Below are positions 15,235 to 58,180 of a stretch of 64,000 nucleotides of DNA, piece by piece. Position 1 is the stretch's first letter. Each line of letters begins with the position of its first letter. The notes under the pieces are model-generated. The model did no database searches, was not told where the DNA came from, and saw nothing but the letters and a program-made list of their open reading frames with translations. The stretch is from Domibacillus sp. DTU_2020_1001157_1_SI_ALB_TIR_016 (lineage in GTDB: Bacteria > Bacillota > Bacilli > Bacillales > Domibacillaceae): positions 2,873,501 through 2,937,500 of the forward strand of contig NZ_CP135439.1 in the NCBI RefSeq assembly GCF_032341995.1, given 5' to 3'. A program made the position numbers and the translations under genes.

Positions 15235-17271
<2,037 letters not shown>

Positions 17272-17339
17272 TCACGTGGGTTACAAAGGCGCTGCCGCAG
17301 GACGCGGCGTGTACGGCCTTCGATTCTTTAAATCGGTTT

Positions 17340-36462: not shown

Positions 36463-36488
36463 TAGTCGATCGAGAGTACGAATGCTTT

Positions 36489-36558
36489 CCCCATAGTCGG
36501 CTCGTTTACGGCGGCCGGTAGAAACTCGCGGGCCATATTCCCGCTATTATATGAGGTG
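36489..36558 (-). ncRNA. Purine (guanine-class) riboswitch aptamer, pur operon
   Basis: The minus strand has the conserved purine aptamer core: ATATGG, GTTTCTACC, CCGTAAA and GACTATG, with P1 arms CCTCAT/ATGGGG closing it. The C in GACTATG is the specificity base (C74 in xpt numbering), which reads guanine or hypoxanthine rather than adenine. Together with the terminator it shuts off pur transcription when purine bases are plentiful. Confidence 0.95.
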
Positions 36559-36575
36559 CTTTATTTGTCCTCTAC

Positions 36576-42056: not shown

Positions 42057-42101
42057 GACTAACAAAGGAATATAGAAAGAGACATTCTCTTTCCATTCAT
42101 T

Positions 42102-42168
42102 CGTAGTCGGACCATTTACGGCAGTCCGGTAGAAACTGTCAAGCCTTATTCTCGACGATATACGATGC
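42102..42168 (-). ncRNA. Purine (guanine-class) riboswitch aptamer, pbuG
   Basis: Minus strand contains ATATCG, GTTTCTACCGG, CCGTAAA and GACTACG, the purine aptamer core; C in GACTACG predicts guanine specificity. P1 arms CGTA/TACG close the element. Confidence 0.94.
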
Positions 42169-42194
42169 ATGTAAAAGTAATAATGTACTCTTTC

Positions 42195-46840: not shown

Positions 46841-46877
46841 CAAGTCAGCCCAATTGAATCATTTGGGCTGACTTTTT
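46841..46877. terminator. Bidirectional terminator between osmC-type gene and SCO gene
   Basis: AAGTCAGCCCAA / TTGGGCTGACTT hairpin followed by TTTTTT on plus, between converging genes. Confidence 0.88.
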
Positions 46878-47455
46878 TATTCGATTAACTGTATAAGATG
46901 CGCGGCTGCTTTTTCAATATCTACTCTTTTGCTGCCCGATGCCATATCATGAACGGCTCTTATCCGGCCATCCGCGTCTACCATGTACATGGAAGTTGAA
47001 TGCGTAATGACACCCTCCCCGCTTTTTTCATATATCATGTTAAATTGCTCAGCGTATTCTCTCGTTTGCTGTTCAGTGCCGCGCAGAAACAGCCAGTTTG
47101 ATGATTGAATATCAAAGGCTTCCTTATATTGCAAAATGACTGGGACGGTATCAAACGCCGGATCAAGCGTAACAGATAAGATACTATACTGCTCTTCTTC
47201 TATTCCTTTTTCCGCCAATGCCCGCTGAAGCTTTTTTAAATCCTGTATCGTAAAAGGGCAGACGTCCGGGCATTTTGTATAAAAAAACGACACAAGCATC
47301 GGCTTGCCGCTTACCGAAAAGTCATTTCCGCTTACCTCCTGCATTGAAAAATCATCCACTTCACCGAGCTTGGGCAGTGCTGACAAGGAAGTCCATACAT
47401 AATAAAAGAAAAAACACCCTATAACAACAGCAGCGGCGAGTGCAGCTTTCTTCAT
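46877..47455 (-). CDS. SCO1/SenC family copper protein
   Basis: 192 residues: an N-terminal membrane anchor (about 4-25) and an extracytoplasmic thioredoxin-like SCO domain. Copper ligands are C62 and C66 (KCPDVCP) with His152 (THSTSMY). SCO proteins deliver copper to cytochrome oxidase CuA. Here it stands beside a multicopper manganese-oxidase cluster and no cytochrome oxidase genes, and the mnx operon of Bacillus SG-1 is reported to contain a related protein (MnxC). So copper loading of MnxG is an attractive alternative role. Downstream of two small membrane protein genes. Confidence 0.85.
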   Translation of the reverse strand: MKKAALAAAVVIGCFFFYYVWTSLSALPKLGEVDDFSMQEVSGNDFSVSGKPMLVSFFYTKCPDVCPFTIQDLKKLQRALAEKGIEEEQYSILSVTLDPAFDTVPVILQYKEAFDIQSSNWLFLRGTEQQTREYAEQFNMIYEKSGEGVITHSTSMYMVDADGRIRAVHDMASGSKRVDIEKAAAHLIQLIE

Positions 47456-47472
47456 CGCATCTACCCTCCTTT

Positions 47473-47925
47473 CTACATGCGAAGTGAATAGCGAATAGAT
47501 AACAGGATGCAGGCATGAAAGCAGGCAGCTGCAAATGGAATGGTGTACAGATCAATGGCGGCGGCTGATTCGACCGGTATTCTGCATAAAGCCGGATTTT
47601 GTAAAACAGCGCCCAGCATGGTGCCCATTGCCCCTCCCATTAACCCATTAAACACCCCATTTAATGGAGCTGGATGTTTTAACAGAGTGCCGAACCTCCA
47701 GCCAATCCATAGGCCGATCAGCAGGGAAGCTGCGTAAAAACCAGGAAAAAGCAAAATAAGGCACATGCTGAAGAAAAAAGAAGCGAGCATCGTAATCGTC
47801 ATACAAAGAACCATTGTAAAATGGTCGTCAAAAAGCATCCGCTTCCTCTTTAATAGGTGATATATCCGATACAGTTCTATTCCGTTCCAGCTGCTTAATA
47901 GAAGAATAAAAGCCAAGTTTGTCAC
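47473..47925 (-). CDS. Small membrane protein, paralogue of the next upstream gene
   Basis: About 150 residues with four predicted membrane segments. It aligns by eye with the gene at 47922-48341: both have a KRKR-type basic loop after TM1 and a glycine-rich NGxxxGxMxxMLGxV segment (here FNGLMGGAMGTMLGAVL). I place the start at a GTG whose last bases overlap the upstream stop (GTGA); a longer frame to 47988 would overlap the upstream gene by 67 bases. No function recognised. Confidence 0.6.
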   Translation of the reverse strand: MTNLAFILLLSSWNGIELYRIYHLLKRKRMLFDDHFTMVLCMTITMLASFFFSMCLILLFPGFYAASLLIGLWIGWRFGTLLKHPAPLNGVFNGLMGGAMGTMLGAVLQNPALCRIPVESAAAIDLYTIPFAAACFHACILLSIRYSLRM

Positions 47926-48341
47926 GACCTTTGAATTGAGATCATCACTAAAAGAAGACAGGCAAAAAAGACGGCGTGAATAAACCAAATCAACTGTCCG
48001 GGCATATCTATGACAGATCCGAGCATAGGGGCCATTAAGCCGGTAATAAATCCATTTATCACTCCCGCTAAAAAGGCCTGGTAATCAAAAAGCAATCCAA
48101 ACAGAGCTCCTAAAAGAATCCCTAGGGCCGCAGCAGTGATCGTAACGAGTGTAAAATGAAAAGGAAAAGCAATAACAAGCATAAGCCCGGCAAGCAGGGC
48201 CGAAAAACCGCCCGCTGCTTGACTAATATTCATTCCAAGCTGAATACCAATTCGTTTTTTTCGGCGGAATATGTACATAAATAGGGCGGTGTACACGAAT
48301 AAGTCCACACATAAAAAAGAGAATAAAGTAAGTGTGTTCAC
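47922..48341 (-). CDS. Small membrane protein (tandem paralogue)
   Basis: 139 residues, four hydrophobic segments, with INGFITGLMAPMLGSVI matching its neighbour. Starts with GTG behind GAGGTG. First gene of a three-gene unit with its paralogue and the SCO protein, so a role in membrane handling of copper or in oxidase assembly is possible but only inferred from position. Confidence 0.65.
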   Translation of the reverse strand: MNTLTLFSFLCVDLFVYTALFMYIFRRKKRIGIQLGMNISQAAGGFSALLAGLMLVIAFPFHFTLVTITAAALGILLGALFGLLFDYQAFLAGVINGFITGLMAPMLGSVIDMPGQLIWFIHAVFFACLLLVMISIQRS

Positions 48342-48494: not shown

Positions 48495-49133
48495 TTATTC
48501 TGCTTCGATCATAACAAAGTCTTTAAATGAAAAGACAACCGTTGTTACGGCTGTGCCTGCTGCCGGCTCTTCTTCTTCCTCTTCAAGCCCCAGCACATCC
48601 AGTTCATCTACTACTGGTTCCGCTGCTTCTGCGCTGTAGGCAACCGCGTTGAACAGCACCTTTGCATCAAGGTCCTCGCACATAACCGTGACACGGATTT
48701 CAAAGGAAAGAACAGGTGTCGCTAAAGGGCCGCCTGTTAATAAGTCTGCGAAAAAGTGCTGCGTCTGGCAGCTAGTTACTTTCACTTTTTCCGCTGGCAT
48801 AACCGGCACAACCATTGCTTTCATTGGAACGGCCATACCAGGAGGTGTCGTTGTAAGTCCAGCGGAAACAGCCGGATCACCCCAGTTTAAAACTTCTACT
48901 TTCACAAGACAATTATCAAAACCTGTGGCAGATACCCATAGCTCCTGAGCAGCTTGAGCACCTCCAGCTGTTGAATTCGAAATAGGTCCTGACGTATACA
49001 CCTTTTTATGCATTTTCTTTTTGCATTCCATATATTCATCCTCCTCTTCGTCATAATAAGCACCGCAGTGCTCGCAGCGTTCTTCATCATAATCGTTTTC
49101 TTTTTTACAGTAATCACATTTCCAGCTATCCAT
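48495..49133 (-). CDS. Zinc-ribbon protein, probable spore surface protein
   Basis: 212 residues. The N-terminus has a CxxC...CxxC zinc ribbon (C6, C9, C20, C23) followed by an acidic stretch, then a beta-rich part beginning SGPISNSTAGG and ending with an E-rich segment and VVFSFKDFVMIEAE. No enzyme family is recognised. A sigma-K-like promoter directly upstream and divergence from the mnx operon suggest a coat or outer spore protein made late in the mother cell. Start ATG behind GGGAGG. Confidence 0.65.
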   Translation of the reverse strand: MDSWKCDYCKKENDYDEERCEHCGAYYDEEEDEYMECKKKMHKKVYTSGPISNSTAGGAQAAQELWVSATGFDNCLVKVEVLNWGDPAVSAGLTTTPPGMAVPMKAMVVPVMPAEKVKVTSCQTQHFFADLLTGGPLATPVLSFEIRVTVMCEDLDAKVLFNAVAYSAEAAEPVVDELDVLGLEEEEEEPAAGTAVTTVVFSFKDFVMIEAE

Positions 49134-49318: not shown

Positions 49319-49349
49319 GAATATTTGTCCTGCATTCGCACATATAAAT
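49319..49349 (+). promoter_or_regulatory. Sigma-E-like promoter of the mnx operon
   Basis: GAATATT (49319-49325) and CATATAAAT (49341-49349) with a 15-base spacer resemble the sigma-E pattern KMATATT / CATACANTA. The -10 half is imperfect; overlap with sigma-K is possible. Confidence 0.45.
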
Positions 49350-49379
49350 TTGCTGTAGTTTTGCAGAAGGAGGAGATCA

Positions 49380-50144
49380 ATGAAAACACGCATGAGATTT
49401 GATCAATACCTTTCCACCCTGCTCGAAAAAAGAAAACTTGAAATAACAGAAAAACATGAATCCCTTGAGGAAAAAGAAGGATTCAGTTCTCCCGCCGGAG
49501 CAGCTCCCACAGAAGAAATAAGGCTATTTAACGAATACAAGGAACAAGCCAATCTTCTTCAAATTGCAAATGCCGTTCCCGAAAGAAGAAAGTTTTTAAT
49601 GCTGAAAAAATTTTTAAAGATGCGGCGGAACCAGCAAGTGATTGTGCGTCTGAAAAAAGGTAATCAAATCTTTGAAAAAACAGGAAAAGTAAACACGGTT
49701 GGCCGTGATTTTGTGATGCTGACCAATGCAAAGGAGCGGATTTGGATGCCGTTTCGCACGATTGAGTCCGCTAATATTCCGACGGGAGTCCCTCTGTATT
49801 CCACCTCTCATCAAAATTTGATTTACGATAATCAATTAAAGGAGCGGCTGCTTTACCGCTTCGGTGAGACAGTTGCTTCGAGGGATGTATTAGTCCAGCA
49901 ATTTTACGAAGAAACACTTTTAACCAATTTAAATTCCTGGAAGTCCTTATGGGTAAAGGTCGAAACTGAACAAAAAGTTTCATTCGGAAAAATAGAGGAT
50001 ACGGACAGCGAAACCCTCCGACTGTCTTTTTGGAAAGAAAAACATGAAATGGATGCTGCGCATATTGTCTCCGTTCAAAGCATACGTTACATAAGTCTGC
50101 TTCCATTAATTGTAACAAGGCTGTACAAAAGAGTTTTCAGGTGA
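49380..50144 (+). CDS. Sm-like coat protein, first gene of mnx operon (MnxD position)
   Basis: 254 residues, no signal peptide. Coiled, charged N-terminus (about 1-75), then a small-barrel pattern: QVIVRLKKG, GKVNTVGRDFVMLTN, IWMPFRTIESAN (about 82-135). A conserved block LLYRFGETVAS follows near 157-167, and a second barrel-like half (KVSFGKIEDTDSETLRLSF) near 200. It is paralogous to the gene at 55533. In the mnx operon of Bacillus SG-1 three or more genes precede mnxE, so by position this could be MnxD, but I did not recognise it by sequence. Confidence 0.65.
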   Translation: MKTRMRFDQYLSTLLEKRKLEITEKHESLEEKEGFSSPAGAAPTEEIRLFNEYKEQANLLQIANAVPERRKFLMLKKFLKMRRNQQVIVRLKKGNQIFEKTGKVNTVGRDFVMLTNAKERIWMPFRTIESANIPTGVPLYSTSHQNLIYDNQLKERLLYRFGETVASRDVLVQQFYEETLLTNLNSWKSLWVKVETEQKVSFGKIEDTDSETLRLSFWKEKHEMDAAHIVSVQSIRYISLLPLIVTRLYKRVFR

Positions 50145-50217
50145 ATGTGTTCCCGTTTTTCCTGCCTCACCCATCACACGTCTCGCTCTTGAATTCTTTT
50201 AGTAAAGGAGAGATAGC

Positions 50218-50730
50218 ATGCGCAACAAAAAAGACGAAAAAGAAAAACAAGACGAAAACCTGATTGCCGAGGAAATTGAAACGGCAGCGTTGAAGAACGA
50301 AAACACCGAGGAAGAGCTGGAGATAGCAAAGGAAAACACCGAACAAAAGGAACATGCAGAAGATCAAGAAAACGAGGAAAAAGACAAGCCGGATAATGAA
50401 GACGAGGACGAAGAGGATAAAGACGAAGATGGTGATGAAGACGAAGATGATGAAGACGAATTTTTTGAAGAATTGACCGGTTTGTTAGGCCAAAGTGTGT
50501 TGATTATTACTGAAGCGTCTCAATTAAATTTGCTAGGCCAGACATTCAGGCCTATTTTTTGCGGCCCTATTGTTGAAGTGGAGCGAGGCCACCTGACGAT
50601 TGATCCGGTCACCATTAAAATTTTAAATGCGCCATTTTTCCAGTTCCCAACGCCGCTGTCCATTCCTTTTGAAAGGATTGCCCAGCTGACGCCTTGTTTT
50701 GATTGTAGCGAGCGGTTCCCGCTTATTTAA
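50218..50730 (+). CDS. mnxE: MnxE, small subunit of the Mn oxidase complex, with acidic extension
   Basis: 170 residues. The C-terminal half (about 83-170: QSVLIITEASQLN, LGQTFRPIFCG, TIKILNAPF, LSIPFERIAQ) is recognisable as the MnxE family, the small copper-binding subunit that assembles with MnxF and MnxG. The first 82 residues are an added low-complexity tail almost entirely E, D, K, N and Q, with an unbroken acidic run around 61-82. Known MnxE proteins are about 12 kDa, so this tail is unusual. Three cysteines (115, 160, 163) may bind metal. Second gene of the operon. Confidence 0.75.
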   Translation: MRNKKDEKEKQDENLIAEEIETAALKNENTEEELEIAKENTEQKEHAEDQENEEKDKPDNEDEDEEDKDEDGDEDEDDEDEFFEELTGLLGQSVLIITEASQLNLLGQTFRPIFCGPIVEVERGHLTIDPVTIKILNAPFFQFPTPLSIPFERIAQLTPCFDCSERFPLI

Positions 50731-50757
50731 AGCCAGGAAGAAAGGAAGTGTAAGAAA

Positions 50758-51054
50758 ATGACGTCAAGACGTTCTGCTTCAAATTCCGATAACGTTATGC
50801 ATGATATGGCGCTTGTGGATTATTTTAGAGCCTCTATTGGACAGAGGGCTTTTATAATGACTCCTTCTTATCCCTTTATGTTTATCGGTGAAATTGTTTC
50901 CTTAATAGGAGACCAGGTGGAGCTTGCAGTCGAAACCACCCATTTTGCCCAGCTGGAAAACCGAAACTGGCTCATTCACATTCACAATATCGAAGTGTTT
51001 TATATCGAGTTTCCCGGCGATCCGCGCATCCCAGAGTTAAATGACATGCTGTAA
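50758..51054 (+). CDS. mnxF: MnxF, small subunit of the Mn oxidase complex
   Basis: 98 residues. Segments GQRAFIMTPSYPFMFIGE, ETTHFAQLENRNW and HIHNIEVFYIE match my knowledge of MnxF from marine Mn-oxidising Bacillus. The predicted fold is a small Sm-like beta barrel, as in MnxE. MnxE and MnxF form a ring-like accessory assembly that stabilises MnxG and binds extra copper. The histidines (THF, HIH) are candidate ligands. It ends 14 bases before mnxG. Confidence 0.8.
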   Translation: MTSRRSASNSDNVMHDMALVDYFRASIGQRAFIMTPSYPFMFIGEIVSLIGDQVELAVETTHFAQLENRNWLIHIHNIEVFYIEFPGDPRIPELNDML

Positions 51055-51068
51055 CGAGGAGGAAAACA

Positions 51069-54000
51069 ATGATACGTCGTTATCATGTAGTCGCGATTCC
51101 CATCCGGATGGTGGTCAACAATTTCGGTGACCATAATCCGGATGGGCAGATGTATGTGTTAAAGGAAAATGAAGCAAAAGTAAAAGAGCTGATTCGCAAA
51201 AATCCCTTTACACCGGTAGAGCTCGTACAGCCGCTTACGATCAGAGCGAACGAAGGTGATGTTGTTGAAATTCTTTTTGAAAACCAGCTTCCTTTTGCAG
51301 CGGGCATGCATTTTCAAGATCTCGATTATAACGTGTTAACGTCAGACGGAGCTAACGTCGGCTTTAATCCGAGCTCGCTCGCTGAATGCGGCGAACAGCT
51401 TCTTTACAGGCTGGATGCCACGTTTGAAGGAATTTGTTTTTTCACCGATGTCGGCAATGTATCGAGTACGGAGGATGGCTCCAGCATCCAGGGTCTTTTC
51501 GGTACATTGCTCGTTGAAAAAAGAGGTTCCTGGTGGACCGATCCGGTAACAGGCGGACCGATCAACAGCGGCGCGTTTGCGGATATTCATCATCCTTTCC
51601 TTCCCTCCTTCCGTGAGTATGCATGGTTTTTCCATGATGAAATGGAAGTGAATGATTTAACGGGCAACCGGCCGCTGAACCCGATGACCAATCAGGAAGC
51701 CGAATCGTTTCACGGTGTGAACTACCGATATGAACCGCTTCATAACCGCTTGAAACTTGTAGAAGAAGGTGTTGTGTCTCCCGAGGTTGAAGGAGAAGAA
51801 GTGCATCATGACTCCTGGATGTTTGGCGACCCTGCAACACCGATTCTGCGCGGGTACAAAGGCGACCCTGCTGTGATCCGCTTAATTCATGCAGCATCCA
51901 AAGAAACACATGTTTTTCATTATCATGTGCACCAGTGGCTGAGAGACCCAGGAAATGTTAACTCTGAAATTGTGGATGCACAGGCGATCAGTCCTCAGTC
52001 CCACTATAGCATCCGGCCTTTATATGGACTTGGCAGTCTGCAGGGCGCGATTGGAGATGCGATTATTCACTGCCACTTGTATCCCCATTTCGAAGCTGGA
52101 ATGTGGGGAATGAACCGTGTTTTTGATACATTGCAGGATGGAAGCCAGTGCTATCCAAATGGCGAGCCCATTGCACCGCTTCAGCCGCTTCCTGATTGTC
52201 CTTGCCCGCCGCGCCCCACAAAAGAAAGGCCGGGATTCCCGAACTTCATTCCCGGAAAAGTCGGCTGCAAGGCGCCAAGGCCTCCTCTCGGCATTGTCGG
52301 CGGCCGGGAAATGACAGAGCTTGAAAGAAATGCCGCTGTCCCAAACGCCAGACCGGGAGCTGTTTTTGCGGATCCGTGTATGAAAAATCCGGTCGTTGAA
52401 GAGTTCAATATATCGGTGATTGAACTGCCGATTGTTTATAACAAACAGGGCTGGTACGACCCAAAAGGAAGAATATATGTGCGGGATGAAGATCTGGATG
52501 ATGTGCTGTCCGGAAAAAAGGAGCCTGAACCGCTTGTGCTGCATGTAGCGGCCGGTACGTGCATTCGAATTAATTACACCAATCGGCTGCCTCATATTTT
52601 GGATGGCGACGCGTTTCAGCTGGTGACCCGAACGTATGAGACCGGTTTTCATATTCATTTCGTTAAATTTGATGTTCTTGTAGGCGACGGCGCTAACGTA
52701 GGCTGGAATTACGACAGCTCCGTTTTACCAAATGAAACGATACGATATGAATATTTTGCCGATACAGAATTGAAAGCCTTTTTTGTTCATGATCATTTGT
52801 ATCCTGTTTCTCACCAGCAGCATGGCATTTTTGGAACGGTTGTTGTGCAGCCGCGCTTTTCTCAATTTTTGGATTCTAAAACAGGTGAAGAAACAGATAA
52901 GGGAGCCGAAATTACTGTCCGCCACCCATTGATCGCTGATTATCGTGATTTTACACTGTTTGTCCAGGATTTCGCCATGTTATTTGATAAAGACGGCTGT
53001 CCGATTCAGCCGCCACAGTTCCCCGGCTCACAGGATGATCCCGGTATTTTTGCAGTCAATTACAGAAATGAGCCGCTGCAGTTCCGGCTTGGGAAAGACT
53101 GTGACCCTGCCTACTCTTTCAGCTCTTATGTAAATGGAGATCCCTTCACCCCCGTTTTCCGGGCTTATGAAGGAGATTCCATCCGCATTCGGCTGCTGCA
53201 GGGTGCCCAGGAAGAATCGCACAGCTTTAACTTACACGGCTTAAGATGGAAATCAGAACGGCCCAGCAATGATTCCCAGATCCGGTCACAGCAGCATATT
53301 GGCATTTCAGAGTCTTTTACGTTTGAAATGGATATTCCAAGAGCCGGCGATTATTTATGGGCTTTTGAAACAGAAGAAGATGTGTGGAATGGTACGTGGG
53401 GGCTTATTCGTGCATACGATCAGGAAGTAGATCATCTCATATCGCTGTCAGACCGGCCTTTGCCGGAACCACGAACAAGGCCGCTGCCTGAAGTAACCGG
53501 AAAGCCGCCGGCTCCCGCTGATCCGCAGTCTACCCTTCCGCCTGAAGTAGCGCACAATGCGCCGATTCGCCGATACAGTGTTGTTGCTTTTCAAACGCCG
53601 ATTTTATACAACTCGTTTGGGGACCATGATCCATTTGGCATCGTGTTTGCTTTAGAAGAAGACGTAGATGATATTCTGTCAGGCAGAAAAAATCCGGAGC
53701 CGCTTGTGCTTAGAGGTAATTCTGGTGAGTTAGTCGAAGTTACCTTAACCAGCCAGCTCAAGTTTGACTTGTTCCCATTCCCGGATGGCATTCATCCTTA
53801 CCCACCAGTAAAAGAGCAGGCTTTTTATCCGCCGTCTCTTCGGATTTCCCTGCACGTCAATATGCTTGATTACGATGTTACGACTTCAAGCGGCGGCACG
53901 GTCGGTTTTAATCCTGACCAGACAGTGGGGCCTGGTGAAACGATTACGTACCGCTGGCATGTGCAGGACAGCATGGGCACCTGCGCCATGTGGGATATGG

Positions 54001-54719
54001 CTGACCTGCGTAATCACCGCTCCTTTGGAACATTTGGGGCTTTTATAGCGGAACCGCGCTTTACCACTTATCTTGATCCTTATACGCTGGAGCCTGTGCA
54101 AACAGGCACAAATGTGCTGCTTCAACACCCACTCAACGACAGGTATAGAGAATTTGTTTTAGTGATGCATGACGGTGTTCGTTTAGAAGATAAGCATGGT
54201 AAAGTGATTATCGATCCACTTGACGGTGTCATTCCAAAACCGGACCCTGAAGACGATGAAGTAGACACATATGATTTTGGTTCGCGCGGTTTTAATTACC
54301 GGACGGAACGGCTGATTAACCGCTTTAGAAAACACCCTGTTTTAGGTGACTTATTTAGTTCAGAAATTCACGGTGATCCAGCCACACCTGTTTTTGAAGC
54401 GTATCCCGGTGACCCTGTTGTTGTCCGGCTCACTACCCCTTCGGAACGCAGAAGAAGCCATACATTCCACATTCACGGACACAACTGGAAATTCGATCCG
54501 AGAGATATAGACTCCCGGATTGATTCATTCACAGGCCATATGGTTGTAGGTGTAACAGAAGATTTGCTTTTAATTGGCGGTGCCGGAGGAACGTATAACT
54601 ATCCGGGGGATTATATGTACCGGGCCGGCAATATTCGCTGGGATATCGAACAGGGAATGTGGGGAATCATCCGGGTTCACAGCAAAGTACAGCCCCATTT
54701 GCCGCCTTTATCTCATTGA
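51069..54719 (+). CDS. mnxG: MnxG, multicopper oxidase for Mn(II) oxidation
   Basis: 1216 residues (3651 bases), the exact size class of MnxG and far larger than laccases or CotA. It oxidises Mn(II) to Mn(IV) oxide at the spore surface using oxygen. Six cupredoxin repeats are suggested, as in ceruloplasmin. Copper motifs: H281-x-x-H284-x-H286 and H334-C-H336-x3-H340-x4-M345 (domain 2), H528-I-H530 and H574-D-H576 (domain 3), an extra H718...H723, and H1131-x-x-H1134-x-H1136 with M1197 at the C-terminus. No signal peptide, consistent with mother-cell assembly. The motif order is permuted relative to laccases. Confidence 0.9.
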   Translation: MIRRYHVVAIPIRMVVNNFGDHNPDGQMYVLKENEAKVKELIRKNPFTPVELVQPLTIRANEGDVVEILFENQLPFAAGMHFQDLDYNVLTSDGANVGFNPSSLAECGEQLLYRLDATFEGICFFTDVGNVSSTEDGSSIQGLFGTLLVEKRGSWWTDPVTGGPINSGAFADIHHPFLPSFREYAWFFHDEMEVNDLTGNRPLNPMTNQEAESFHGVNYRYEPLHNRLKLVEEGVVSPEVEGEEVHHDSWMFGDPATPILRGYKGDPAVIRLIHAASKETHVFHYHVHQWLRDPGNVNSEIVDAQAISPQSHYSIRPLYGLGSLQGAIGDAIIHCHLYPHFEAGMWGMNRVFDTLQDGSQCYPNGEPIAPLQPLPDCPCPPRPTKERPGFPNFIPGKVGCKAPRPPLGIVGGREMTELERNAAVPNARPGAVFADPCMKNPVVEEFNISVIELPIVYNKQGWYDPKGRIYVRDEDLDDVLSGKKEPEPLVLHVAAGTCIRINYTNRLPHILDGDAFQLVTRTYETGFHIHFVKFDVLVGDGANVGWNYDSSVLPNETIRYEYFADTELKAFFVHDHLYPVSHQQHGIFGTVVVQPRFSQFLDSKTGEETDKGAEITVRHPLIADYRDFTLFVQDFAMLFDKDGCPIQPPQFPGSQDDPGIFAVNYRNEPLQFRLGKDCDPAYSFSSYVNGDPFTPVFRAYEGDSIRIRLLQGAQEESHSFNLHGLRWKSERPSNDSQIRSQQHIGISESFTFEMDIPRAGDYLWAFETEEDVWNGTWGLIRAYDQEVDHLISLSDRPLPEPRTRPLPEVTGKPPAPADPQSTLPPEVAHNAPIRRYSVVAFQTPILYNSFGDHDPFGIVFALEEDVDDILSGRKNPEPLVLRGNSGELVEVTLTSQLKFDLFPFPDGIHPYPPVKEQAFYPPSLRISLHVNMLDYDVTTSSGGTVGFNPDQTVGPGETITYRWHVQDSMGTCAMWDMADLRNHRSFGTFGAFIAEPRFTTYLDPYTLEPVQTGTNVLLQHPLNDRYREFVLVMHDGVRLEDKHGKVIIDPLDGVIPKPDPEDDEVDTYDFGSRGFNYRTERLINRFRKHPVLGDLFSSEIHGDPATPVFEAYPGDPVVVRLTTPSERRRSHTFHIHGHNWKFDPRDIDSRIDSFTGHMVVGVTEDLLLIGGAGGTYNYPGDYMYRAGNIRWDIEQGMWGIIRVHSKVQPHLPPLSH

Positions 54720-54757
54720 CATTGATAAGAGTAAACGATTTGTTTCCTTTTTACATG

Positions 54758-54794
54758 GAAAAGCGGTATTCCATAGGGGATACCGCTTTTTTTC
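54758..54794 (+). terminator. Terminator of the mnx operon
   Basis: AAAAGCGGTAT / ATACCGCTTTTTTT hairpin 39 bases after the mnxG stop. It also lies just past the end of the converging gene at 54805. Confidence 0.88.
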
Positions 54795-54804
54795 ATACAG
54801 CTTG

Positions 54805-55260
54805 TCAGCGGAATTTATCAATCCGTTCTACCCATTTGATTTGATCAAATTGAACAAGAAACACTTTTTTCTTGACTTCATGCTTATGCTTTTCTTTTTT
54901 CACTTTCACAACAATCTCAATAAAATCATTGCCTACAAAAGTAATTCTTCCTTGAACAATCTTTTCTCCTTCAAGGGCAACCTTCACATGCTCACCGATC
55001 AGCTGCCGAAAGCGAAACGCCATGCTGCTTCTTAATCCGCTCAAGCGGATGCGAAAGCGATCGTCGCACAAACATCTATCCATAAAATGACGGTTACCAT
55101 CTCCATGTCCACAGCGGCTGCATGAACACTGATGACGGAAATCGTGGTGCTGGTGTTGGTTGTGCGAATGAAACCGGCTGAAGGAATCGCCTTTATTGCA
55201 GCCGCAGGAATGTTGATGGTGTTTTCCAAAATCTTGACAATCGCAGTTTAGTATACTCAT
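54805..55260 (-). CDS. His/Cys-rich protein with C-terminal Sm-like domain
   Basis: 151 residues. The first ~70 residues hold about 14 histidines and 10 cysteines in clusters (CDCQDF, HHQHSCGCN, HNQHQHHDFRHQ, CSCSRCGHGDG), a clear metal-binding or cross-linking region. The C-terminal part (about 85-151: EHVKVALEGEKIV, GRITFVGNDFIEIVV, VFLVQFDQIKWVER) has the Sm-like barrel pattern shared with the mnx-flanking genes. Convergent with mnxG and preceded by a sigma-K-like -10. Probably a metal-loaded spore coat protein; ATG behind AAAGGAGG. Confidence 0.7.
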   Translation of the reverse strand: MSILNCDCQDFGKHHQHSCGCNKGDSFSRFHSHNQHQHHDFRHQCSCSRCGHGDGNRHFMDRCLCDDRFRIRLSGLRSSMAFRFRQLIGEHVKVALEGEKIVQGRITFVGNDFIEIVVKVKKEKHKHEVKKKVFLVQFDQIKWVERIDKFR

Positions 55261-55532: not shown

Positions 55533-56399
55533 ATGCAGGAACATTCTGATTTTGATGATTCTTTTGATCATGAAGAGTGCTGTTCAAAAAGCGAAAACAG
55601 GCCGGCTTTTCCGTCACCTCCCTCTTGTCTCCCTGAGAGACAGCAGGCGAAGCTTGAAGCTAAAATCGAGGAAGCCAATACCCTGCTGCTGAATCTTGCT
55701 TTGTCGAACGAACAGTCAGAAGAAGGACGAAGAGTATCATTTGAAGGACTAGTCGGCCAATGGGCAGAAGTTGTGCTTACGCGTGAAGGAGAAGCAGGAC
55801 TGCCTGCTGTTAAAAAAGGGAATCGAATAAAAATAAAAAACAGTAAAGAAAGTTTATTTAAGAAAAAGCTGGCAGCGAGAAAGCGCAGAAAAAGACGGGC
55901 TGTCCGGCCGAAAGCGCATGCCGGCAAAAAAAAGCTGCCGCAAGTAACGCTGCCTAAAAGCAGCGTGCTTCTTTACAAGCAATCCGGCCGTGTTCAGCTG
56001 GCTGGACGTAATTTCGTGCTCCTCAAGAAAAAAGAGCAGGAAATGATCATTCCTTTTTCAAAAATACAATCGATCAAGTCCTTTACACGCCATCGCGGAC
56101 TCGATAAAGATCCAGCTTTGCTTGATATTGACCCGGCACTTCGACGTGCACTTATGTTTAAATTCGGAGAAACGGTTGCTTCTTCTCCCGAATTGATTCA
56201 CCTTTTCTTTAAAATGACACTCCCTATTTTCTTATTGGGTTATATCGACAAAAAGGTAAATATTGTATTAGCCAGAAATAACATAGCCGGCCATATTCAT
56301 GAAGTGGATGAAGAAACAGTTACGATCGTCACAGCTAAAAGAAAGCAACGTGTAATTCCTTTGGATTCCATTTATTTGATTGTTTCATCATCCCTCTAA
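55533..56399 (+). CDS. Sm-like coat protein, paralogue of the first mnx operon gene
   Basis: 288 residues. A Ser/Pro/Cys-containing acidic N-terminus leads to a barrel-like region (QWAEVVLTREGEAG near 72) interrupted by a very basic insert (KKKLAARKRRKRRAVRPK, about 110-128). The barrel resumes with VQLAGRNFVLLKKK and MIIPFSKIQSIKS. The block LMFKFGETVAS (about 209-219) and the C-terminal GHIHEVDEETVTIVT match the gene at 49380. No enzyme function; sigma-K-like promoter directly upstream. Likely spore coat. Confidence 0.68.
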   Translation: MQEHSDFDDSFDHEECCSKSENRPAFPSPPSCLPERQQAKLEAKIEEANTLLLNLALSNEQSEEGRRVSFEGLVGQWAEVVLTREGEAGLPAVKKGNRIKIKNSKESLFKKKLAARKRRKRRAVRPKAHAGKKKLPQVTLPKSSVLLYKQSGRVQLAGRNFVLLKKKEQEMIIPFSKIQSIKSFTRHRGLDKDPALLDIDPALRRALMFKFGETVASSPELIHLFFKMTLPIFLLGYIDKKVNIVLARNNIAGHIHEVDEETVTIVTAKRKQRVIPLDSIYLIVSSSL

Positions 56400-56719
56400 T
56401 AAAGCAGTTGTTATCTTTTCGTAATTTTTCTTCTCCAGATCCGTTTTATACTGACTGCTCCGACTCTTCAGTGATAAAAAAAGGCCGGCCCCTTTCAAAC
56501 GAAGGGGCCGGCCTTTTTTTATTGCCCAAACTCCTGAATCCTTAAAAAGCAAAAAACAAAATAAATTTAAATATTTTCACCGCCAACTCCACATCCTACG
56601 TAAAGGCATGACCAATCAGTGATGGTCCATCCGCTCATTGTTTACCCGGTATTGCGCTCTTATTGTATGCAGGAAAGCATAACGGCCACGATTTTAAAGA
56701 TGGAGGAGGAACGAACACG
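56400..56719. other. Intergenic region
   Basis: 320 bases: the first part holds a strong terminator, and the remainder before 56720 shows no gene. A GGAGGAGG ribosome site precedes the next gene, but I found no convincing promoter. Confidence 0.6.
56476..56521 (+). terminator. Strong terminator after the gene at 55533
   Basis: Perfect GGCCGGCCCCTT / AAGGGGCCGGCC stem flanked by A7 and T7; works on plus and would also act in reverse. Confidence 0.92.
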
Positions 56720-58180
56720 ATGAAATATGTATCAGCATTGTTAATAAAATTTGTCATGGTAACGCTCGTTCTTTGGATTATTCTAGGCGGATTCTTTAAT
56801 ATTTCCTTGGGTGACATCTTCACAATAAGCGTTGTGCTCACTGCTGCCGGATTTCTGATTGGGGATTTATTTATTTTACCGAAATTCGGAAATCCTACAG
56901 CATCTGCTGCTGATTTCGTCTTAACACTTATCGTTGTTTGGCTGCTGGGAGCCCTTTTATTTGAACCGCGTATTTCATTATGGGCAGCCGCTCTTTTATG
57001 TGCCGTTGTCATTGCGATTGGCGAGTATTTTTTCCATATGTATATGCTCAAGCAGGGACCCGCTGGACAATCTCAGCAAAACAAGAAAAAGGCCGGCGGC
57101 CAAAATGCTGGCAAAAACGCCAACCAGGCTGTATCCACTTTCAAATATCAAACCGAAGCTGGCTCCGATATGGCGGTTCGACCGAATGTCAACAAAGCCA
57201 ATATTGAGCAACAAGGCGCCGTCATTCAAGATCAAAAAAAGAAAACCATTTCAGTGGACCGATATCAAACCGAAGCCGGCTCCGATATCTCTGTAAAACC
57301 GGCTGACGAGCAAAATAAAAAGAACAAACAAGGCGAAGCGGCAAAGTCTGAGAAAAAACAAAAAGACTCAACCAGCCAATACGGGACAGAAGCTGGCCTT
57401 GATATGTCCTTCGCTTCCCGTATTCAAAAAACCGGGAAGAACAGCAAGAAGGGCGTGTCAGCACAATCTGAGAAAAACCAGCAGAATTCGTCTGATCAGT
57501 ATGGCACAGAAGCCGGTTCCGATATGTCCGTTACTTCCGGCAATAAAAAAGCCGGGCAAAGCAACAAGCAGGGCGGCTCGGCACAATCTGGGAAAAATCA
57601 GCAGAATTCATCCGATCAGTATAGTACAGAAGCCGGCTCGGATACATCCTTTACTTTCGGTAATCAAAAACCTGGACGGAGCAACAAACAGGGCAGCTCG
57701 GCACAAACTGGAAAAAGCCAGCAAAATGCATCGGGTCAATATAGTACAGAAGCTGGCTCGGATACGTCTTTTACTTTCGGCAATCAAAAACCCGGACGGA
57801 GCAACAAACAGGGCAGCTCGGCACAAACTGGAAAAAGCCAGCAAAATGCATCGGATCAATATAGTACAGAAGCCGGTTCCGATACATCCTTCACGTTCGG
57901 CAATCAAAAACCGGGACGAAGCAACAAACAGGGCAGCTCGGCACAAACTGGAAAAAGCCAGCAAAATGCATCGGATCCGTATGGCACAGAAGCTGGGTCT
58001 GATATGTCTGTTGCCTCTTCTAACCAAAAAACCGGTATGAGCAATAAACAAGGGCAGCCGTCACAGTCCGGAAAAGCGGATCAAGGCTCAAGCGATCCAT
58101 ACGGTACAGAAGCCGGCTGTGAGCTGACTATTATAGATGTACCAAGAAAACGCAAGAAGATGAACCTGAAACGAAAATAA
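56720..58180 (+). CDS. DUF2512 membrane protein with SASP-like repeat tail
   Basis: 486 residues. The first ~115 form a four-TM DUF2512 domain (YndM-like; MKYVSALLIKFVMVTLVLW, GDLFILPKFGN). The remainder is a hydrophilic tail rich in Q, N, S, K and G with nine copies of a Y-x-TEAGSD motif starting at residues 145, 184, 223, 263, 303, 343, 383, 423 and 463. This resembles gamma-type small acid-soluble spore proteins, whose TEFASE sites are cut by the germination protease GPR. I infer a membrane-anchored, protease-releasable store. Ordinary DUF2512 proteins lack such a tail. ATG at 56720 behind GGAGGAGG. Confidence 0.7.
   Translation: MKYVSALLIKFVMVTLVLWIILGGFFNISLGDIFTISVVLTAAGFLIGDLFILPKFGNPTASAADFVLTLIVVWLLGALLFEPRISLWAAALLCAVVIAIGEYFFHMYMLKQGPAGQSQQNKKKAGGQNAGKNANQAVSTFKYQTEAGSDMAVRPNVNKANIEQQGAVIQDQKKKTISVDRYQTEAGSDISVKPADEQNKKNKQGEAAKSEKKQKDSTSQYGTEAGLDMSFASRIQKTGKNSKKGVSAQSEKNQQNSSDQYGTEAGSDMSVTSGNKKAGQSNKQGGSAQSGKNQQNSSDQYSTEAGSDTSFTFGNQKPGRSNKQGSSAQTGKSQQNASGQYSTEAGSDTSFTFGNQKPGRSNKQGSSAQTGKSQQNASDQYSTEAGSDTSFTFGNQKPGRSNKQGSSAQTGKSQQNASDPYGTEAGSDMSVASSNQKTGMSNKQGQPSQSGKADQGSSDPYGTEAGCELTIIDVPRKRKKMNLKRK
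57141..58134 (+). repeat. Tandem repeat, nine units of 117-120 bp
   Basis: The period is 117 bp for the first two steps and 120 bp for the rest. Copies at about 57660-57980 are nearly identical at DNA level, and outer copies have diverged. The whole array is in frame inside the DUF2512 gene. Confidence 0.92.

What the first reader, a model, noticed from the sequence alone, without database searches (positions are those of the whole stretch)
49319..54794. A complete-looking manganese-oxidase (mnx) operon
The sequence shows a 1216-residue protein with all four multicopper oxidase motif types plus extra histidine pairs, preceded by two short genes I recognise as MnxF and MnxE. Established knowledge: MnxEFG from marine Bacillus spores is an unusual complex able to take Mn(II) to Mn(IV). 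Here the operon is shorter (D-like, E, F, G), with a sigma-E/K-like promoter and a terminator. Inference: this organism oxidises Mn(II) at its spore surface.
Basis: partly seen in the sequence, partly recalled or inferred. Interest (0 to 1): 0.85.

Follow-up and report, generated by a model that had tools for sequence, protein, structure and literature searches.

The report
Complete manganese-oxidase gene cluster in Domibacillus
This stretch of a spore-forming bacterium's genome holds a complete set of genes for a known enzyme complex that turns dissolved manganese into solid manganese oxide, plus two uncharacterised neighbour genes that usually travel with it; it is a good new example of a known system, not a new kind.

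Summary
MnxG (51069-54719) matches the solved Bacillus PL-12 MnxG over its full length and is 71% identical to SG-1 MnxG. The two short genes match solved MnxF and MnxE. Eleven putative copper ligands are identical in 83 of 83 MnxG ORFs aligned.

One statement is wrong: the operon is not "shorter". Homologues of mnxA, mnxB and mnxC (SCO1-like) lie just upstream on the minus strand, so all seven genes are present, split into divergent ABC and DEFG units.

New here, to my knowledge: (1) two unnamed genes, H (paralogue of MnxD) and I (His/Cys-rich tail plus barrel), recur beside mnx loci. In a 24-genome survey D/H occur in exactly the 9 genomes with MnxG, and I in 8 of those 9. (2) Models of D and I resemble Sm/Hfq-type barrels and solved MnxF, suggesting a shared fold. 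(3) The genome has a second MnxG (84% identical), in a Domibacillus clade lacking an adjacent mnxE, with mnxF damaged in 3 of 4, yet under purifying selection.

Spore-surface Mn(II) oxidation is very likely but untested. New member of a known kind; moderate interest.

The parts
46877..47455 (-). mnxC homologue, SCO1/SenC copper chaperone-like, CPDVC motif
   Evidence: Pfam SCO1-SenC 3.1e-27; 38.5% to the SG-1 ORF between B and D; a CxxxC somewhere in 43 of 43 family members
47473..47988 (-). mnxB homologue, small putative membrane protein; true start uncertain (listed ORF overlaps mnxA)
   Evidence: HMM family B, next to A as in SG-1
47922..48341 (-). mnxA homologue, small putative membrane protein
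   Evidence: 45% over 100 aa to the first SG-1 ORF; map
48495..49133 (-). [not shown]
   Evidence: 7 HMM hits among 80 loci, the window included, all Domibacillus; A2L_zn_ribbon E 0.017, below cut-off
49319..49349 (+). putative sigma-E-like promoter GAATATT-15-CATATAAAT
   Evidence: sequence; six-locus alignment; pattern count
49380..50144 (+). mnxD homologue, two predicted small barrels
   Evidence: 42% to SG-1 mnxD; AF2 pLDDT 79
50218..50730 (+). mnxE with an acidic N-terminal extension (78 residues, 39 D/E)
   Evidence: 9bxa_B E=1.8e-35 over residues 80-170; composition
50758..51054 (+). mnxF
   Evidence: 9bxa_E E=1.7e-34
51069..54719 (+). mnxG, 1216-aa multicopper oxidase
54757..54792 (+). 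intrinsic terminator between mnxG and the convergent gene I
54805..55260 (-). gene I: His/Cys-rich tail plus one predicted Sm-like barrel
55533..56399 (+). gene H: paralogue of MnxD
   Evidence: hhalign D-H 99.8%

Best explanation
A bona fide mnx gene set of the SG-1/PL-12 type. MnxE and MnxF are expected to form the E3F3 hexamer bound to one MnxG, which takes Mn(II) through Mn(III) to Mn(IV) oxide with O2 via its T1 and trinuclear coppers. MnxC (SCO1-like) plausibly delivers copper. MnxD and the companions H and I are predicted small-barrel proteins that may scaffold or metallate the complex in the spore coat. A sigma-E-like promoter would switch on DEFG in the mother cell. Shown: homology, conserved ligand positions, gene order, co-occurrence. 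Predicted: folds of D and I. Inferred: assembly, localisation, activity, and the roles of A, B, C, D, H and I.
For: Full-length match to solved MnxG, and matches to solved MnxE and MnxF. SG-1 locus L056 carries the same seven gene families in order A-G, plus H and I. 11 putative copper ligands identical in 83 of 83 ORFs. The MnxG tree (quick method) places the window's copy among Domibacillus copies within the Bacillota set. A sigma-K gene without internal stops, over the family cut-off. Literature: mnxEFG is the minimal active set, complex MnxG-E3F3, oxidation carried out by spores in PL-12 (PMC5622069: introduction, metal-binding section and discussion read).
Against: No activity, expression or spore data for this strain. 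The sigma-E assignment rests on a short consensus, was not recovered upstream of 34 mnxD genes outside the genus' main group nor of Domibacillus tundrae. MnxE's acidic extension is absent from the solved complex. H and I have no experimental function.
Confidence: 0.88

Rival explanations
1. An mnx-derived complex whose main physiological substrate is not Mn(II) (for example Fe(II), Cu(I) or phenolics), with Mn oxidation incidental or lost.
For: No substrate data here. Multicopper oxidases are often promiscuous (general knowledge, recalled). Mn-specific residues could not be tested.
Against: 71% identity to MnxG of the Mn-oxidising strain SG-1 over the full length, 11 of 11 tallied ligand positions kept, and E and F retained.
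Confidence: 0.1
2. A decayed or silent mnx locus kept by chance.
For: A second copy elsewhere in the genome has no mnxE and a split mnxF.
Against: All mnx reading frames of the window cluster are open; MnxG dN/dS 0.046-0.068 in four pairs with other Domibacillus main copies.
Confidence: 0.02

Closest known systems
MnxEFG complex of Bacillus sp. PL-12 (PDB 9bxa, titled 'Structure of Mnx H340A complex'; PMC5622069)
   Same: MnxG full-length, MnxE and MnxF homologous
   Different: Window MnxE has a ~78-residue acidic extension; the solved chain has Ala at 340, where all 83 ORFs have His, explained by the entry's title, H340A
mnx gene cluster of Bacillus sp. SG-1 (read here in L056)
   Same: Homologues of seven consecutive genes A-G and of the two flanking genes H and I
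   Different: SG-1 has A-G on one strand; the window has C, B and A divergent from D-G
Pseudomonas-type MnxG (NCBIfam NF041487; the link to Pseudomonas is my inference from its length)
   Same: Name and multicopper-oxidase repeats
   Different: 326 bits against a cut-off of 3100, model length 1894: a different, longer family (lengths of 1941-1970 for Pseudomonas entries in the table of PMC3600357, passages seen)
Sm/Hfq-type small barrels, including GerQ (8zra)
   Same: Predicted folds of D and I
   Different: Two barrels in D; His/Cys-rich tail in I; no RNA-binding evidence sought

Membership tests
Bacillus-type MnxG | full-length similarity to characterised MnxG | tested here: met
   2209 bits to 9bxa_A over 1-1214; 71% to SG-1
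Bacillus-type MnxG | T1 and trinuclear copper ligands | tested here: met
   11 putative ligands identical in 83 of 83 ORFs; assignment to T1 or trinuclear site is by motif recall, not from coordinates
Mnx complex | adjacent mnxE and mnxF | tested here: met
mnx operon of SG-1 | seven genes mnxA-G | tested here: met
   all seven homologues present, in two divergent units
mnx operon of SG-1 | single co-directional operon | tested here: not met
   A, B and C on the minus strand
Mnx complex | Mn(II) to Mn(IV) oxidation | not testable with these tools
   needs enzyme or spore assay
mnx operon | sporulation, mother-cell expression | tested here: inconclusive
   sigma-E-like element and sigma-K gene present; no expression data
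NF041487 MnxG (long type) | curated score cut-off 3100 bits | tested here: not met
   326.5 bits
Sm/Hfq-like fold for MnxD and I | five-stranded small barrel resembling solved Sm-like chains | tested here: inconclusive
   [not shown]

The most novel reading that the evidence does not exclude
The mnx system is larger than the described seven genes. It is a biomineralisation module built largely from one repeatedly duplicated Sm-like barrel family (D, E, F, H, I), in which the undescribed H and the His/Cys-rich I work with MnxEFG in the spore coat. In Domibacillus a second MnxG has escaped its own MnxE and works with E and F supplied in trans, or without them.
Probability: 0.35. Interest if true: 0.6.

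Novelty: new member of a known kind. Interest (0 to 1): 0.4.

Why it matters
Mnx is a rare biological catalyst that makes a Mn(IV) mineral, and the roles of its accessory genes are largely unknown. A comparative map that ties two unnamed genes to MnxG, predicts a shared fold for some accessory proteins, and shows a conserved MnxG lineage without its own MnxE gives concrete gene-deletion and co-expression tests. For the locus alone, the result is a solid annotation of a known system in a genus where I found little on it: of 11 papers holding both 'Domibacillus' and 'manganese' (listing), the two ranked first were searched for mnx and hold no such word; the other nine were not opened.

Tried and rejected
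The long-type MnxG (NF041487) was rejected by score. Generic two-domain laccase kinship: the 2209-bit hit is MnxG, the next PDB hit 34 bits. An initial worry that PL-12 lacks the T1 histidine at 340 was resolved by the PDB title H340A; the paper search for MnxG with H340A found 0 papers. Profile comparison did not support D-F (0.5%) or E-D (9%) homology by sequence, and was weak for I-F (30%) and I-D (65%); E-F reached 82%, so a single family rests on fold models, not sequence. MnxE's fold was not predicted, and 9bxa chains are not among the 50 rows shown by VIA-align for D or I. Pfam hits of the barrel proteins are weak: DUF150_C in 14 of 34 H, 3 of 35 D, 1 of 33 I and 2 of 37 F members at E <= 0.01. 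Neighbours of the second MnxG (a 100-aa and a His-rich 138-aa ORF, L003) were tested as a conserved module: not found beside L005, L006 or L008. The generic sigma-70 scan was uninformative (10 sites against 9.9 expected) and the terminator scan (12 against 7.7) did not list the hairpin found by folding; a strict sigma-E pattern over the whole window missed the site because of one base and gave 2 matches elsewhere against 0.82 expected. The paper of the 9bxa structure was not among the papers listed (2 of 2; 20 of 62); the 1996 SG-1 paper is not held, so seven genes mnxA-G, the SCO1-like nature of MnxC and a sigma-K promoter in SG-1 are recalled. That H and I are undescribed rests on database names (I: 'hypothetical protein' where named, 7 hits; H: 50 hits, mostly 'hypothetical protein' or unnamed, with single 'LSm family protein', 'sRNA-binding protein', 'ribosome maturation factor RimP' and 'Spore coat protein') and on searches, whose open-access library lacks most subscription journals.

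Full report
WHAT IS THERE. Four plus-strand ORFs lie at the stated place: 254, 170, 98 and 1216 aa. The last is MnxG: phmmer against PDB sequences gives 9bxa_A 'MnxG' over residues 1-1214 with 2209 bits; the next PDB hit has 34 bits. The 98-aa and 170-aa proteins match chains 9bxa_E (MnxF, E 1.7e-34) and 9bxa_B (MnxE, E 1.8e-35, through residues 80-170). SG-1 MnxG (L056) is 71% identical and the nearest listed relative, Domibacillus robiginosus (L015), 94%. Pfam finds Cu-oxidase_3 and Cu-oxidase_2.

COPPER SITES. Of 86 MnxG ORFs found in the window, L003 and the 78 fetched loci, the 83 longer than 1100 aa were aligned; three shorter pieces (L078, two of L081) were left out. H281, H284, H286, H334, C335, H336, H340, H528, H530, H574 and H576 are identical in 83 of 83, as are H718, H723, H1136 and H1138. 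The layout HxxHxH / HCHxxxHxxxxM in one domain and HxH / HxH in the next is what a T1 plus trinuclear centre needs (motif knowledge, recalled). The PDB chain has Ala at 340 because the entry is the H340A mutant (title). The 78 loci are the best of 146 candidate stretches, so the most distant relatives are not in these counts.

NOT A SHORTER OPERON. In SG-1 seven plus-strand ORFs run A, B, C (SCO1-like), D, E, F, G. The window has homologues of A, B and C at 46877-48341 on the minus strand, and D is 42% identical to the SG-1 D. So the set is complete but split into divergent units. Of 71 loci with an E-adjacent MnxG, A/B lie upstream on the same strand in 30, on the opposite strand in 24, and are not found within 6.5 kb upstream in 17. 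C is not found within the fetched stretch in 28 of these 71, upstream on the opposite strand in 6 (all Domibacillus, the window included), downstream in 14, and counted as same strand upstream in 23; one of the 23 (L058) really lies at the downstream end of G (with the map).

CONTROL ELEMENTS. A sigma-E-like element (GAATATT-15-CATATAAAT, 49319-49349) precedes mnxD. It lines up in six Domibacillus loci. A pattern finds it within 150 bases upstream of 4 of 39 mnxD genes against 0.42 expected: 4 of 5 Domibacillus genes in that list (not D. tundrae L057) and 0 of 34 others; gene starts were taken mechanically, so some upstream stretches may be misplaced. The terminator at 54757-54792 folds with z -7.5. 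The genome has a sigma-K gene without internal stops, over the family cut-off.

TWO COMPANION GENES. HMM maps of 80 loci (78 fetched plus the window and L003) show two more recurring genes. H (window 55533-56399) is a paralogue of D (hhalign 99.8%); D and H cross-match and were separated by position only. I (window 54805-55260, minus) has a His/Cys-rich N-terminal part and a barrel; over whole proteins the medians are 7.6% His and 7.5% Cys in 64 members. Among 60 MnxG copies counted with E and F adjacent and at least 6.5 kb on both sides, 57 have at least one D/H gene, 44 at least two, 54 have I, 49 A/B and 40 C. In the 24 genomes that the tool holds for the window's family MnxG is found in 9 (9 of 13 in its genus, 0 of 11 outside), D/H in the same 9, I in 8 of those 9 (not G018), and none of the other 15 has D/H or I at E <= 1e-6. 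In the window's own genome D, H and I occur only at this locus. Because the 9 genomes are one genus, linkage and shared descent are not separated by that survey; the wider 60-copy count helps but was gathered by way of MnxG. H and I are mostly unnamed or hypothetical.

MnxE EXTENSION. Window MnxE has 78 extra N-terminal residues, 39 of them Asp or Glu. Among the 14 longest MnxE ORFs, extensions about 40% or more acidic occur in the seven Domibacillus genes (window, L004, L007, L009, L010, L015, L068) and Mesobacillus persicus (L014); the other six are 30% or less. The Domibacillus tundrae mnxE (L057, 96 aa) has none. A Mn(II)-gathering or nucleating role is speculation.

SECOND MnxG. The genome's other contig carries a second MnxG, 84% identical. 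There tblastn finds F split across two frames and no D or E (frames), and mnxE occurs once in the genome. The tree groups it with MnxG from L005, L006 and L008 (support 95, quick method). All four have F but no E beside them, and none of the four has A, B, C, D, H or I within 6.5 kb. F looks whole only in L006; it is split in L003, changed at its end in L005 and short at its start in L008; draft-sequence error cannot be excluded. Yet these MnxG genes are full length without internal stops, keep all 16 positions checked, and have dN/dS 0.068-0.077 in four comparisons within the clade, against 0.046-0.068 for four comparisons among main copies and 0.073 between window and second copy; dS is near or above 1 in several pairs, so these ratios are rough. 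The three genomes concerned also hold an E-F-G locus (window, L004, L068), so sharing E and F in trans is the simplest reading. Of all 83 copies, 68 were counted with E and F, 4 with F only, 7 with neither (one of them, L069, has only 215 bases upstream held), and 4 with E only; those 4 do have F, missed because the listed MnxG ORF overlaps it.

VERDICT. A real, complete mnx cluster of the known SG-1/PL-12 kind. Published work seen: PMC5622069 (abstract, introduction, metal-binding section, discussion and passages); passages of PMC3600357, PMC3039467, PMC12679158 and PMC8894767. Others were seen in listings only. Spore Mn(II) oxidation is likely but not shown.

Noticed in passing
L003:8711-12361 (-), own genome contig C1: Second, 84% identical MnxG without mnxE and with a split mnxF; part of a Domibacillus clade under purifying selection.
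   Followed up: yes
L003:13100-13950: Fragments resembling phage terminase genes (recognised by eye in the frames) lie upstream of the second mnxF, suggesting relocation next to prophage remains.
   Followed up: no
L003:7467-7883 (-): His-rich 138-aa protein (YmaF-like by eye) downstream of the second MnxG; not found at L005, L006 or L008.
   Followed up: partly
window 56663-58180: DUF2512 membrane protein followed by a 40-residue tandem repeat (120-bp units, about 5 copies); beside mnx in L004, L010 and L015 too.
   Followed up: partly
[not shown]
   Followed up: partly
window 36474-36574 and 42084-42184 (-): Two purine riboswitches 5.6 kb apart.
   Followed up: no
window 17266-17332 (-): Bacillaceae-1 RNA, just over the gathering score.
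   Followed up: no
L009, L011, L021, L023, L044: Two MnxG genes within a few kilobases of each other in five genomes, in L009, L011, L021 and L044 one of them without its own E and F.
   Followed up: partly
PMC12679158 (passages): In a coking-soil bioremediation study Domibacillus made up 69.81% of the community in one treatment (N20) and fell in the combined Mn-oxidiser treatments; the paper does not mention mnx.
   Followed up: no
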